A DNA stretch of 26,924 nucleotides from Saccoglossus kowalevskii (taxonomy: Eukaryota; Hemichordata; Enteropneusta; Harrimaniidae): the NCBI RefSeq assembly GCF_000003605.2, contig NW_003140811.1, positions 551,562-578,485 of the forward strand, given 5' to 3'. How positions within the stretch are numbered: the stretch's first letter is position 1; every line of letters begins with the position of its first letter. Made by a program: the position numbers and the translations under genes. The notes below the pieces were generated by a model that saw only the letters and a list, made by a program, of their open reading frames with translations, ran no database searches and was not told where the DNA came from. Shown here one piece after another: positions 10,112-15,638 of the stretch.

Positions 10112-11242
10112 TTATGCATAATCAGCAATGCTTGGAAGAGTCTCGGCGCGTTGGTTGTACCAGGGAGGTAGTCTGTTGATCTGAAGAGGAGGCAGTCTGT
10201 GTTCTCGTGCGGGGACGGGTTGCGGCATGTTGTGGGGTTGATGTAAATAATCATTTTCAACCTTATTGTTACCGTCATCTTCTTGTGAGTTTCTTCTGTT
10301 AATACTGATTGTTTTAATGGAAGTTTCTCGTCCTTTTGCACGACGATATAGTGAAGCGACTTTCCTTTTCAGAGTCTTCCGTTTTTGACGCGTTTGTGGG
10401 TTGCCCGAACGGTCTGGACTTGTGTCTGGGGTTTTACTAACTGCACAGTCGTCGGACTTTTCGGGTTCATCCTTTCCAATTCTGTTGATATTGATTGTCT
10501 TAACGACAGTTTCTCGACCCCTTGCACGACGATATAGAGAAGTGACTTTCCTTTTTAGAGTCTTCCGTTTTTGACGCTTGTGTGAGTTGTCGGAAATGCA
10601 GTCTGGACTTGTATCTTGGGTATTGCCAATTATTGCACAGTCACCGGACTCTTGTATGTCGTTCTTTATTCTGTTGATATTAATTGTTTTAACGACAGTT
10701 TCTTGTCCTCTAGTACGACGATAGAGAGAAGTGACCCTTCTTTTTAGACTCTTCTTTTTGCGTTTTTGACGAGGTCTTGGTGAGTAGTCGGAACCGGGAT
10801 CGGAAACGTGACCGAAATCCCGATTTTCATAAAACGCCCGCACTGGTCTCAAAGGCATAGCAGAGGAATTGGGACGGCAAGGCTCTGGTCCAAGTTCAAT
10901 TTCTTCATAACTGTCATACCTGGTTAAGAGCGGCGAGGGATTTCTGGCGGAATGAACATCTTCCGAACAGCTATCGACATCTTCTACATCTCTAGAATCA
11001 AATTCATCGATGTCAACATTTTTGTTGTCAATCACTTGAACTTTAGTCTCACGTCCTGTTATCCGACGAAACTTTGAAACCATTTTTGATTTCAAACTCT
11101 TCTTCGTCGACTTCGGGGAAGAATCGGCGCATTCCAGAGACGCGCCACGCGTACTGGAAGTCGGACTCGGGCTTGTCATCTTGGGTTCACGATGTCTTAC
11201 CTCACGTTCGGGACTGAGTGTACGTGCCTGACAACAAAACAT
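10112..11242 (-). CDS. Novel basic repeat protein, copy A (376 aa, single exon)
   Basis: No family was recognised. The reading frame is intact. Four copies of a basic motif of about 29 residues occur at residues 47-75, 163-191, 227-254 and 288-316, consensus TLKRKVTSLYRRARGRET then VVKTININR. The last three sit in a ~62-residue unit that also holds S-x-DCA and DTSPD. The first copy is the most diverged. The motif looks like a cationic helix followed by a beta-like tail (KTININR), suiting nucleic-acid, phosphoinositide or nuclear-import binding. Outside the repeats are a YEEI motif (112-115, Src-family SH2 ligand type), PPWY (359-362, PPxY, WW-domain ligand) and RAETLP (365-370, 14-3-3 mode-I-like). 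No signal peptide or membrane helix is seen. ATG 11242 has G at -3. Met22 (CCAAGATGAC context) is an alternative start. The second copy at 14508-15638 differs at 11 residues. Confidence 0.85.
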   Translation of the reverse strand: MFCCQARTLSPEREVRHREPKMTSPSPTSSTRGASLECADSSPKSTKKSLKSKMVSKFRRITGRETKVQVIDNKNVDIDEFDSRDVEDVDSCSEDVHSARNPSPLLTRYDSYEEIELGPEPCRPNSSAMPLRPVRAFYENRDFGHVSDPGSDYSPRPRQKRKKKSLKRRVTSLYRRTRGQETVVKTININRIKNDIQESGDCAIIGNTQDTSPDCISDNSHKRQKRKTLKRKVTSLYRRARGRETVVKTININRIGKDEPEKSDDCAVSKTPDTSPDRSGNPQTRQKRKTLKRKVASLYRRAKGRETSIKTISINRRNSQEDDGNNKVENDYLHQPHNMPQPVPAREHRLPPLQINRLPPWYNQRAETLPSIADYA

Positions 11243-11448
11243 TACTTCTGAATTACGTACGTTTTAGTAGCAAATGCACAGAATGACTCCTCCACGGCTC
11301 GTAACAGTTTGTCGAATGACTCTCTCTGGACTTGATGCTTTGTTTTTTCAACGTCGCCATGAGCAACGTATGTGACGTAAGGCGCGTCACGAAGTCCAAG
11401 AGCGCCAGATGCGTTGTGTCGTCACGGAACGCGCTCTCCCAGAACGGC
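11243..11448 (-). promoter_or_regulatory. Promoter region of gene A with CRE-like sites
   Basis: TGACGTAA (11373-11380) lies 131 bases upstream of the ATG; copy B has TGACGTGA at exactly the same spacing. A neighbouring CGTCA half-site (11385-11389) is also kept in B. These are CREB/ATF-type sites. The stretch is richer in CpG than its surroundings, as expected at an invertebrate promoter. No clear TATA box was seen. Confidence 0.5.
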
Positions 11449-11841
11449 GTAAAAAGAACGATCTGAAAGCGCGTGCCAGTCTAGTTTGGCGTTAGTGCGT
11501 CCTCTTGACAAGCACTCGCTCAATACATACCTGGAGAGTGAACGGCGCAAATTTTTGCAAACTTCAATACGTTTAGCGTTATAAAGTGGCTAAAAATATC
11601 CTTTTCTTGGAATCATCAATGAAAAAAATAAATAAATAAATAAAATAAAACAGAAACACTAGAAAGCTCATATGCGTGTTTTCGGCACCAATATTGAAAC
11701 ATGTCTAAGCATTGAGGTTTAGTTTGTTCTTGACTACATGTTGCGCCGTAAAATTGGGGTGTGTTAATACTTTTCATTCACATGAACTTAAAAGAATCAA
11801 ATTGAAACCAAATTTCTGAGATTTGGTACCCACCCAACTGG

Positions 11842-11963
11842 TATTTATTTATTTATTTATTTATTTATTTATTTATTTATTTATTTATTTATTTATTTAT
11901 TTATTTATTTATTTATTTATTTATTTATTTATTTATTTATTTATTTATTTATTTATTTATTTA
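11842..11963. repeat. (TTTA)n microsatellite, about 30 units
   Basis: An uninterrupted run of TTTA for about 122 bases. Its purity suggests recent expansion and length polymorphism between individuals. Confidence 0.97.
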
Positions 11964-12831
11964 CAAAACTTAACAAACTGCTGCTGAGCTTAACACGTTT
12001 ATTAATAAACGCAAACGGTTCAACGTACACACTTTTGCGACAGCTACGTAACAGGCGTATGCAGCGATAACACCCGTAAAACTCGCTAATTTCGCAGTAT
12101 TGCCTCATTAAAGTATGGCAACTTGGATGCTAACTGCTGTTAACTTCGTGTTTGAGGTCTCGTATCTGCTATCGACACTCCACTCAATTATTCATACAAA
12201 TTACACAACAAGCATAACATGCGGTATGCGGTTGTTGCAGCATCCACGAGCCACGCGCGTTTATTACAGGTATTCCCTTACATTTGTAAATATACACGAA
12301 AAGAATGAGATGCTAAAGCCCCATCGCGAATACATCGACCGCCCAGAAAAAAACAAATATAAAAATCTGTTAAGGGGAAAACATCTAGAAACCTGTACCC
12401 GACGCAATGGCAGATGTACCTACCAGGGGTGGATGTTGGGTGTCACACATTAAAGAGAATATATATATATATATATAGTGAAATTAAAAAAACATCGTGA
12501 GATGTTTGCAACCGAGACTGAATACATTAGAACACTCTTCCTACTATATACTCGTGAGCGTCATGGTTACTTGGCCACTAACCAACCACTAGCAAGTAGA
12601 ATCTCCTGTGAATAATTTACATACGAAGGCTACGAAACACAGATAATTTATCATTCTTGGTGGCGGGTCACATCTTTGTTTGCAACAGCTTAGAAATTGT
12701 ATGTTTAACACTTTTCGGGAGTGAACAGGTAAGATTATCGACGGAATCGCTTGAAAGGGGATTATCAATATTAATTGTGTTATGATCAAAATAGTTTATG
12801 TGTATTTATATTATGCGCTGCTATATTAAAG

Positions 12832-13895: not shown

Positions 13896-14271
13896 TTTAT
13901 TATTTTTAATAGACAGACTAAGATGTCTGACAAATGCAATTACCAGAGTCGCATAATAATTGTATGGCAGAAAATAGAACATATGAAATGGTGGATTAAG
14001 CAATAGCTGTCAACGAAGAATAAGGCATTGTGGAAAATTAGGGGCGAGTCTGGTCGGAAAATATGTATATATGTCTTATTTACCCAGCGAAAAAATATAA
14101 AGTAACGTAGTTTGCTTGCAAACAACAACATATGAAAACAAACAAATAATATTTCACTTTTTCTACCGGTATAGAGTTGGGTTCTTGCCAGATATTGGTA
14201 CATTCGTCATAGAACACTGTGGACTATAGAAATAAACTTAATCACTATCATATAATAGTCAATATTATTTT

Positions 14272-14277
14272 TTTATT
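14272..14277 (-). terminator. Polyadenylation signal AATAAA for duplicated gene B
   Basis: Minus-strand AATAAA about 230 bases past the stop codon of gene B, at the position matching 9876-9881 in copy A. Confidence 0.4.
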
Positions 14278-14507
14278 ACTTATAATGTGACTTTATAATG
14301 GCACATAAAATACATTATTGTTTACAATGCTTTATCCAATAAGAATATAAACACTCGTCCATCTTTTAAAAGTTCATGATTGCCTTGTCTGCTCCTGGTC
14401 CTATTTATGTAAGTTCGGTCGATACACTGATAAAAGACACTATCATAATAGTGCCCTCCGAATTCTCGGGACTTGAATCCGACCGTGACCTACTCGATAT
14501 ATTAAGT

Positions 14508-15638
14508 TTATGCATAATCAGCAATGCTTGGAAGAGTCTCGGCGCGTTGGTTGTACCAGGGAGGTAGTCTGTTGATCTGAAGAGGAGGAAGTCTGTGTTC
14601 TCGTGCGGGGACGGGTTGCGGCATGTTGTGGGGTTGATGTAAATAATCATTTTCAACCTTATTGTTACCGTCATCTTCTTGTGAGTTTCTTCTGTTAATA
14701 CTGATTGTTTTAATGGAAGTTTCTCGTCCTTTTGCACGACGATATAGTGAAGCGACTTTCCTTTTCAGAGTCTTCCGTTTTTGACGCGTTTGTGGGTTGC
14801 CCGAACGGTCTGGACTTGTGTCTGGGGTTTTACTAACTGCACAGTCGTCGGACTTTTCGGGTTCATCATTTCCAATTCTGTTGATATTGATTGTCTTAAC
14901 GACAGTTTCTCGACCCCTTGCACGACGATATAGAGAAGTGACTTTCCTTTTTAGAGTCTTCCGTTTTTGACGCTTATGTGAGTTGTCGGAAATGCAGTCT
15001 GGACTTGTATCTTGGGTATTGCCAATTATTGCACAGTCACCGGACTCTTGTATGTCGTTCTTTATTCTGTTGATACTAATTGTTTTAACGACAGTTTCTT
15101 GTCCTCTAGTACGACGATAGAGAGAAGTGACCCTTCTTTTTAGACTCTTCTTTTTGCGTTTTTGACGCGGTATTGGTGAGTAGTCGGAACCAGGATCGGA
15201 AACGTGACCGAAATCCCGATTTTCACAAAACGCCCGCACTGGTCTCAAAGGCATGGCAGAGGAATTGGGACGGTAAGGCTCTGGTTCAAGTTCAATTTCT
15301 TCATAACTGTCATACCTGGTTGTGATCGGCGAGGGATTTCTGGCGGTATAAACCTCTTCCGAACAGCTATCGACATCTTCTACATCTCTAGAATCAAATT
15401 CATCGATGTCAACATTTTTGTTGTCAATCACTTGAACTTTAGTCTCACGTCCTGTTATCCGACGAAACTTTGAAACCATCTTTGATTTCAAACTCTTCTT
15501 CGTCGACTTCGGGGAAGAATCGGCGCATTCCAGAGACGCGCCACGCGTACTGGAAGTCGGACTCGGACTTGTCATCTTGGGTTCACGATGTCTTACCTCA
15601 CGTTCAGGACTGAGTGTACGTGCCTGACAACAAAACAT
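14508..15638 (-). CDS. Novel basic repeat protein, copy B (376 aa, single exon)
   Basis: Same length and layout as copy A at 10112-11242: four basic repeat motifs, YEEI at 112-115, PPWY at 359-362 and RAETLP at 365-370, all retained. By eye there are about 20 base differences in 1131. Roughly 12 change the protein, giving 11 substitutions: D95E, H97Y, S98T, L105I, L106T, G118E, C122Y, Y138C, R156I, N188S, K257N. Seven of these fall between residues 95 and 122, while residues 1-94 and 258-376 are identical. Both copies remain open, so neither has plainly decayed since duplication. Function unknown; a cytoplasmic or nuclear adaptor is the reading suggested by the short motifs. Confidence 0.85.
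   Translation of the reverse strand: MFCCQARTLSPEREVRHREPKMTSPSPTSSTRGASLECADSSPKSTKKSLKSKMVSKFRRITGRETKVQVIDNKNVDIDEFDSRDVEDVDSCSEEVYTARNPSPITTRYDSYEEIELEPEPYRPNSSAMPLRPVRAFCENRDFGHVSDPGSDYSPIPRQKRKKKSLKRRVTSLYRRTRGQETVVKTISINRIKNDIQESGDCAIIGNTQDTSPDCISDNSHKRQKRKTLKRKVTSLYRRARGRETVVKTININRIGNDEPEKSDDCAVSKTPDTSPDRSGNPQTRQKRKTLKRKVASLYRRAKGRETSIKTISINRRNSQEDDGNNKVENDYLHQPHNMPQPVPAREHRLPPLQINRLPPWYNQRAETLPSIADYA

What the first reader, a model, noticed from the sequence alone, without database searches (positions are those of the whole stretch)
10112..15638. Young tandem pair of a single-exon gene of unknown family
Two intact 376-codon genes about 4.4 kb apart are 97% identical in protein, with matching promoters, 3' flanks and poly(A) signals. 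I recognise no domain. An unclassified gene kept intact in two copies is a good candidate for a lineage-restricted family.
Basis: partly seen in the sequence, partly recalled or inferred. Interest (0 to 1): 0.7.

Follow-up and report, generated by a model that had tools for sequence, protein, structure and literature searches.

The report
Tandem pair of unfamiliar repeat-protein genes
A stretch of animal DNA carries two neighbouring, intact, nearly identical genes for a charged, probably unfolded protein built around four copies of one basic motif; no known family matched, but animal sequence databases could not be searched, so whether it is truly new stays open.

Summary
Two minus-strand ORFs of 376 codons (10112-11242, 14508-15638) are 97.1% identical in protein and 98.2% in DNA, with an AATAAA at the same distance after both stops. 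(1) The protein has a four-fold internal repeat, a basic motif of about 33 residues. (2) The duplication is not simply young: synonymous sites and 3' flank differ by 3-4%, the outer parts of the same duplicated block by 19% and 33%. A recently homogenised tract (gene conversion) inside an older duplication fits best. (3) Outside a fast linker (codons 95-157), 5 of 210 synonymous but 2 of 729 nonsynonymous sites differ (P=0.008, split chosen after seeing the data), which supports protein-coding genes. Pfam, NCBIfam, PHROGs and PDB gave no credible relative. A sulfonylurea-receptor-like exon points to an animal genome. My preferred mechanism, inferred only, is a membrane-tethered disordered protein working like GAP-43: Cys-3/Cys-4 for palmitoylation plus repeated basic phosphorylatable motifs. 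No eukaryotic collection, RNA data, structure prediction or own-genome search was available, so 'lineage-restricted' is untested.

The parts
14508..15638 (-). copy A, ORF of 376 codons
   Evidence: in-frame TAA 24 nt upstream of the ATG
10112..11242 (-). copy B, ORF of 376 codons
   Evidence: same upstream in-frame TAA
15414..15512 (-). copy A repeat 1 (aa 43-75), divergent member
   Evidence: 36-42% aa identity to repeats 2-4
15066..15164 (-). copy A repeat 2 (aa 159-191)
   Evidence: 73% aa identity to repeat 3, 64% to repeat 4
14877..14975 (-). copy A repeat 3 (aa 222-254)
   Evidence: 82% aa identity to repeat 4
14691..14789 (-). copy A repeat 4 (aa 284-316)
   Evidence: DNA repeat of units 2-4 seen
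11018..11116 (-). copy B repeat 1
   Evidence: same columns as copy A
10670..10768 (-). copy B repeat 2
   Evidence: same columns as copy A
10481..10579 (-). copy B repeat 3
   Evidence: same columns as copy A
10295..10393 (-). copy B repeat 4
   Evidence: same columns as copy A
15627..15638 (-). copy A N-terminus MFCC, candidate double palmitoylation site (Cys-3, Cys-4)
   Evidence: function inferred by analogy to GAP-43
11231..11242 (-). copy B N-terminus MFCC
   Evidence: same inference
15639..15864 (-). copy A 5' flank shared with copy B; CpG-rich promoter candidate with TCACGTCA
   Evidence: CpG observed/expected 1.81 in 15639-15900 against 0.89 in the window
11243..11459 (-). copy B 5' flank shared with copy A; CpG-rich promoter candidate with TTACGTCA
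   Evidence: CpG observed/expected 1.50 in 11243-11520
14272..14277 (-). copy A poly(A) signal AATAAA
   Evidence: 231 nt after the stop
9876..9881 (-). copy B poly(A) signal AATAAA
   Evidence: 231 nt after the stop
13380..15864 (-). whole duplicated block, copy A (with a 59-nt-period tandem array at 13673-13806 not seen in B)
9009..11459 (-). whole duplicated block, copy B (with a stretch about 9420-9556 not seen in A)

Best explanation
Two protein-coding genes arose by a local head-to-tail duplication of about 2.5 kb; the ORF and 3' flank were later homogenised, most likely by gene conversion, so that both still encode almost the same protein (anatomy shown; conversion inferred). The protein grew by tandem copying of a basic ~33-residue motif; units 2-4 stand 62-63 residues apart, and a longer linker parts them from a diverged first unit (shown). 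Inferred mechanism: an intrinsically disordered adaptor anchored at the cytosolic face of a membrane by palmitoylation of Cys-3 and Cys-4. Its basic motifs hold acidic lipid or an acidic partner, and phosphorylation of the serines and threonines inside them weakens that hold. This is modelled on GAP-43 and MARCKS (recalled). It is analogy, not homology.
For: Two intact ORFs. Between repeats of copy A, synonymous sites differ more than nonsynonymous (repeats 2/3: pS 0.44, pN 0.15, Fisher P=0.012; 2/4 P=0.063; 3/4 P=0.086). Outside codons 95-157 the copies differ at 5 of 210 synonymous and 2 of 729 nonsynonymous sites (P=0.0076, post hoc). Difference rates: synonymous sites 3.1%, 3' flank 4.3%, outer downstream block 18.7% (P=2.8e-9 against synonymous), distal 5' flank 33% (P=8.5e-14). 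On a charge-hydropathy plot (boundary recalled) the whole protein and the four parts tested fall on the disordered side and the SUR exon, as control, on the folded side; no 19-residue hydrophobic stretch. MFCC start in both copies; GAP-43 is palmitoylated at Cys-3 and Cys-4, disordered, and has a basic effector domain phosphorylated by PKC (passages of PMC7494789). Seven [RK][RK]x[ST] sites, six of them wholly within the four motifs.
Against: Amphipathicity is not exceptional: 12-38% of shuffles reach the hydrophobic moment of the four motif cores. Calmodulin patterns (recalled) are near shuffle level: 1-5-10, 2 hits against 2.2; 1-8-14, 2 against 2.0; 1-14, 12 against 9.9; no IQ motif; the exceptions are single hits to basic 1-8-14 at residue 230 (mean 0.0) and to 1-5-8-14 at residue 2 (mean 0.4). 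Just after the ATG stands TTTTGTTGTCAG, like a splice acceptor, and GAG|GTAAGA at codons 14-15 is like a donor; if the acceptor is used, or if Met-22 is the start, the cysteines are lost (sequence). Clusters KRQKRKTLKRK and KRKKKSLKRR fit a nuclear signal as well. The proximal 5' flank (11/111) differs more than synonymous sites (P=0.018), so the homogenised tract does not clearly reach it. Without an outgroup, conversion is not proven. No transcript, relative or structure model supports the mechanism.
Confidence: 0.3

Rival explanations
1. Same two real genes, but the product is a nuclear protein: the basic motifs are nuclear-localisation and nucleic-acid-binding patches of a disordered chromatin- or RNA-associated protein.
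For: K-K/R-x-K/R clusters at residues 160 and 222, net charge +24. No hydrophobic membrane span.
Against: The one bipartite-signal pattern tried found nothing; Cys-Cys at positions 3-4 has no role in this reading; no DNA- or RNA-binding domain in Pfam.
Confidence: 0.3
2. Cytoskeleton-associated disordered protein: the four spaced basic motifs act as multivalent contacts with acidic filament surfaces, as the repeats of tau/MAP2 do (recalled), tuned by proline-directed phosphorylation.
For: Spaced basic motifs, nine [ST]P sites, disordered composition.
Against: No Pfam match to any family; no sequence relation to a solved structure for copy A or for the repeat profile.
Confidence: 0.15
3. Open reading frames in duplicated DNA, or a mobile-element-derived ORF, with no maintained function.
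For: Mobile-element remains lie in the window; dN/dS between the copies is only 0.43 overall, and codons 95-157 show no constraint (10/144 against 3/45).
Against: 376 codons open in both copies, synonymous bias between repeats and outside the linker, shared CpG-rich 5' flank and poly(A) signal, no inverted repeats of 60 nt or more in the window (shorter ones not examined around the block), no third copy or fragment in the window, no domain in Pfam.
Confidence: 0.12
4. Assembly artefact: two alleles of one gene placed in tandem.
For: A 3-5% neutral difference is within the range of alleles in very heterozygous invertebrates (recalled); reads could not be inspected.
Against: The 1.9 kb between the copies matches neither outer side beyond chance hits (best E 0.96), and outer parts of the duplicated block differ by 19% and 33%.
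Confidence: 0.08

Closest known systems
GAP-43 (neuromodulin)
   Same: Cysteines at exactly positions 3 and 4, disordered composition, basic phosphorylatable segments downstream (passages of PMC7494789)
   Different: No detectable sequence relation (no Pfam hit); no IQ motif; four basic segments instead of one effector domain; 4.0% Ala against 22% in GAP-43
MARCKS / BASP1
   Same: Lipid-anchored proteins with a basic effector domain (MARCKS recalled; BASP1 in passages of PMC7494789)
   Different: BASP1 is myristoylated at its N-terminus, which needs a glycine at position 2 (recalled); here residue 2 is Phe, and Thr if Met-22 is the start
Tau/MAP2 repeat proteins (recalled)
   Same: Disordered, several spaced basic repeats, many [ST]P sites
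   Different: No Pfam match, so no recognised tubulin-binding repeat
Tandem duplicates homogenised by interlocus gene conversion
   Same: Identity plateau over the gene with diverged outer flanks; the opening of the abstract of PMC4132178 (search listing) calls conversion a major driver of concerted evolution of duplicated regions
   Different: No outgroup or third copy here, so exchange, its direction and its timing are not shown directly

Membership tests
GAP-43 (neuromodulin) family | N-terminal Cys-3/Cys-4 palmitoylation site | tested here: inconclusive
   MFCC present in both copies; palmitoylation and start codon use not testable; splice-acceptor-like sequence overlaps
GAP-43 (neuromodulin) family | IQ calmodulin-binding motif | tested here: not met
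   0 matches to the IQ pattern in copy A (pattern and its place in GAP-43 recalled)
GAP-43 (neuromodulin) family | sequence homology (Pfam model) | tested here: not met
   0 Pfam families at E<=1 for either copy
MARCKS/BASP1 | N-terminal Met-Gly myristoylation site (recalled) | tested here: not met
   residue 2 is Phe; the alternative start Met-22 is followed by Thr
MARCKS/BASP1 | basic effector domain with phosphorylatable Ser/Thr | tested here: inconclusive
   7 [RK][RK]x[ST] sites, 6 within the four motifs, but no exceptional amphipathicity
Protein-coding gene under purifying selection | nonsynonymous changes rarer than synonymous | tested here: met
   dN/dS 0.43 overall; repeats 2/3 P=0.012, but 2/4 0.063 and 3/4 0.086; rest of ORF P=0.0076, post hoc; no sign of it in codons 95-157 (P=1.0)
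Lineage-restricted (orphan) gene family | no homologue outside a clade | not testable with these tools
   No eukaryotic nucleotide collection held; no relative in prokaryotic, viral, phage and plasmid sets, as expected for an animal gene
Lineage-restricted (orphan) gene family | no known domain | tested here: met
   Pfam 0 hits at E<=1; NCBIfam best 17.3 bits against a cut-off of 173; PHROGs best 16.7 bits; PDB best E 2.7 for copy A and 0.99 for the repeat profile
Gene-conversion pair | tract of high identity including synonymous sites inside a more diverged duplicated block | tested here: met
   3.1% synonymous and 4.3% 3' flank against 18.7% and 33% in outer blocks; 9.9% in the proximal 5' flank and 6.1% in a 98-nt block between
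Gene-conversion pair | phylogeny with an outgroup showing exchange | not tested
   no outgroup sequence available
Transposable element ORF | terminal repeats, many copies, element domain | tested here: inconclusive
   no inverted repeat of 60 nt or more (shorter ones not examined), two copies only in the window, no Pfam domain; genome-wide copy number unknown

The most novel reading that the evidence does not exclude
A previously undescribed animal protein family, unrelated by descent to GAP-43/MARCKS, that reached the same design: a double-palmitoyl anchor followed by an array of four phosphorylatable basic effector motifs, made by internal repeat growth and kept in two copies by gene conversion.
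Probability: 0.12. Interest if true: 0.55.

Novelty: new member of a known kind. Interest (0 to 1): 0.3.

Why it matters
If expressed and restricted to one clade, it would be a clear case of a gene that grew by internal repetition and is kept as a homogenised tandem pair, with a testable membrane-anchoring design. If relatives exist in annotated animal genomes, it is an ordinary tandem duplicate. Restricted, repeat-rich, disordered proteins in tandem are, as I recall, not rare, so the interest is moderate.

Tried and rejected
Family searches: Pfam gave nothing for either copy. The weak hits elsewhere were rejected as chance matches to basic sequence: NCBIfam sigma-factor model 17.3 bits against a cut-off of 173 and a kinase model 11.5 against 364; two PHROGs, best 16.7 bits; PDB E 2.7 (copy A) and 0.99 (profile of the copy-A repeats). 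Relatives in IMG/VR and GTDB contigs: 4 and 63 stretches matched one of six peptide patterns, 0 confirmed by tblastn (this method finds close relatives only); phages and plasmids, no match. These tools warn that records of the window's own genome may be left out. tRNA and Rfam at gathering score: none. A bacterial promoter scan found nothing and does not apply to an animal genome. Six-frame Pfam scan at E<=0.01: 12 translations that together cover both strands; only a Myb/SANT-like domain and a transposase piece appeared. Amphipathic-helix and calmodulin-motif ideas were tested and mostly failed. A first regular expression for the repeats found only two of the four; it was replaced. Eight paper searches: three found nothing, five gave listings; of one listed paper I read passages (PMC7494789), of the others only the listing.
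Full report
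OBSERVATION. The two ORFs exist as described, on the minus strand, at 10112-11242 (copy B) and 14508-15638 (copy A), each ATG to stop with 376 codons. They align without gaps; 365 of 376 residues are identical and 1111 of 1131 bases. In 2000 mononucleotide shuffles of the 2 kb around copy A no open run exceeded 188 codons. Both have an in-frame TAA 24 nt upstream of the ATG and an AATAAA 231 nt after the stop.

SURROUNDINGS. An ORF at 2059-2868 (minus) matches the first transmembrane domain of the sulfonylurea receptors: best PDB match ABCC8/SUR1, E=3.2e-26 over residues 81-254; Pfam's TMD0_ABC model stays below its cut-off (16.3 bits against 27). From this I infer an animal genome (SUR being an animal family is recalled). 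Mobile-element remains are present: a Transposase_1 piece (mariner type, recalled) at about 703-924, minus, and a Myb/SANT-like domain at about 6958-7218, plus, which may be of that kind. No tRNA and no Rfam family at gathering score. Species and phylum were not determined.

THE DUPLICATION. Homology covers 13380-15864 and 9009-11459, with a tandem array in A (13673-13806) and a stretch in B (about 9420-9556) that the other lacks. The 1.9 kb between the copies matches neither outer side; four short chance-level hits had E=0.96. Differences per aligned site: synonymous sites of the ORF 8/254; 3' flank 23/541; a 98-nt block 6/98; proximal 5' flank 11/111; distal 5' flank 34/103; outer downstream block 56/300. 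Against synonymous sites, the last two have P=8.5e-14 and 2.8e-9 and the proximal 5' flank P=0.018; the 3' flank and the 98-nt block do not differ (P=0.56, 0.23). A single young duplication predicts one rate over all neutral sites. An older duplication with a later homogenised tract over ORF and 3' flank predicts what is seen. Without an outgroup, two successive duplications or rate differences between sites cannot be excluded.

CODING EVIDENCE. Between the copies dN is 0.014 and dS 0.032, ratio 0.43. Nine of the 11 amino-acid differences fall in codons 95-157, in the linker between repeats 1 and 2, where nonsynonymous and synonymous rates are equal (10/144 and 3/45). In the rest of the ORF they are 2/729 and 5/210 (P=0.0076). 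The boundary was drawn after seeing the differences, so this P value is optimistic. Apart from that, the repeats inside copy A differ more at synonymous than nonsynonymous sites: repeats 2/3 P=0.012, 2/4 P=0.063, 3/4 P=0.086; the three comparisons share sequence and are not independent. I take both ORFs as coding, with transcription unproven.

PROTEIN ANATOMY. Four motifs lie at residues 43-75, 159-191, 222-254 and 284-316; repeats 2-4 are 64-82% identical to each other and repeat 1 is 36-42% identical to them. Shared by the four: K-(S/T)-L-K, a basic stretch with S-x-(F/Y)-R-R, then G-(R/Q)-E-T. Composition is rich in R, S, K, P, T, D, E and on the disordered side of a charge-hydropathy plot, with no hydrophobic span. 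The protein starts MFCC. Seven [RK][RK]x[ST] sites (six within the motifs) and nine [ST]P sites were counted in copy A.

MECHANISM. My preferred reading is a membrane-tethered, disordered, polybasic protein comparable to GAP-43, which is palmitoylated at Cys-3 and Cys-4 and carries a basic effector domain phosphorylated by PKC (passages of PMC7494789). This is analogy only. Against it: hydrophobic moments of the motifs are unremarkable, calmodulin patterns are near chance level apart from single hits to basic 1-8-14 and 1-5-8-14, there is no IQ motif, and the start overlaps a splice-acceptor-like TTTTGTTGTCAG followed by a donor-like GAG|GTAAGA (sequence), so the MFCC start needs a transcript. 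A nuclear role is about equally likely. The 5' flanks are CpG-rich (observed/expected 1.81 and 1.50 against 0.89 for the window) and each holds a CRE-like variant, TCACGTCA or TTACGTCA, which suggests but does not show an ATF/CREB-responsive promoter (CRE recalled). The core ACGTCA occurs eight more times in the window and TTACGTCA once more, so this is weak.

NOVELTY. No known domain or solved relative was found, and no relative in prokaryotic, viral, phage or plasmid sequence, which is expected for an animal gene. No eukaryotic nucleotide collection was available, the own genome was never reached (eight of eight requests unanswered), and structure prediction was off. So 'unclassified' is supported against curated families, and 'lineage-restricted' is not tested.

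Noticed in passing
window 2059-2868, minus: Exon-like ORF encoding the first transmembrane domain of a sulfonylurea-receptor-like ABC transporter (ABCC8/9), best PDB E 3.2e-26.
   Followed up: partly
window 385-705 and 1078-1383: Two related stretches (88% identical); a Transposase_1 piece lies between them at about 703-924, minus.
   Followed up: partly
window 6958-7218, plus: Myb/SANT-like DNA-binding domain (Pfam Myb_DNA-bind_4, E 9.5e-8) within a 129-aa ORF.
   Followed up: no
window 4012-5137 and 3412-3897: Two minisatellite-like arrays, periods about 143 and 157 nt; some units of the first carry ATGCAAAT.
   Followed up: no
window 25360-25677, plus: 105-aa ORF (KGQVLRLAAPIHILVD...) that looks like part of an exon but has no significant Pfam match (DUF4537 E 0.2).
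   Followed up: partly
window 15673-15675 against 11277-11279, minus: Copy A has an upstream, out-of-frame ATG where copy B has GTG, a possible difference in translation between the copies (sequence).
   Followed up: no
window 12826-12871: 46-nt near-palindrome (87% self-complementary) between the two copies.
   Followed up: no
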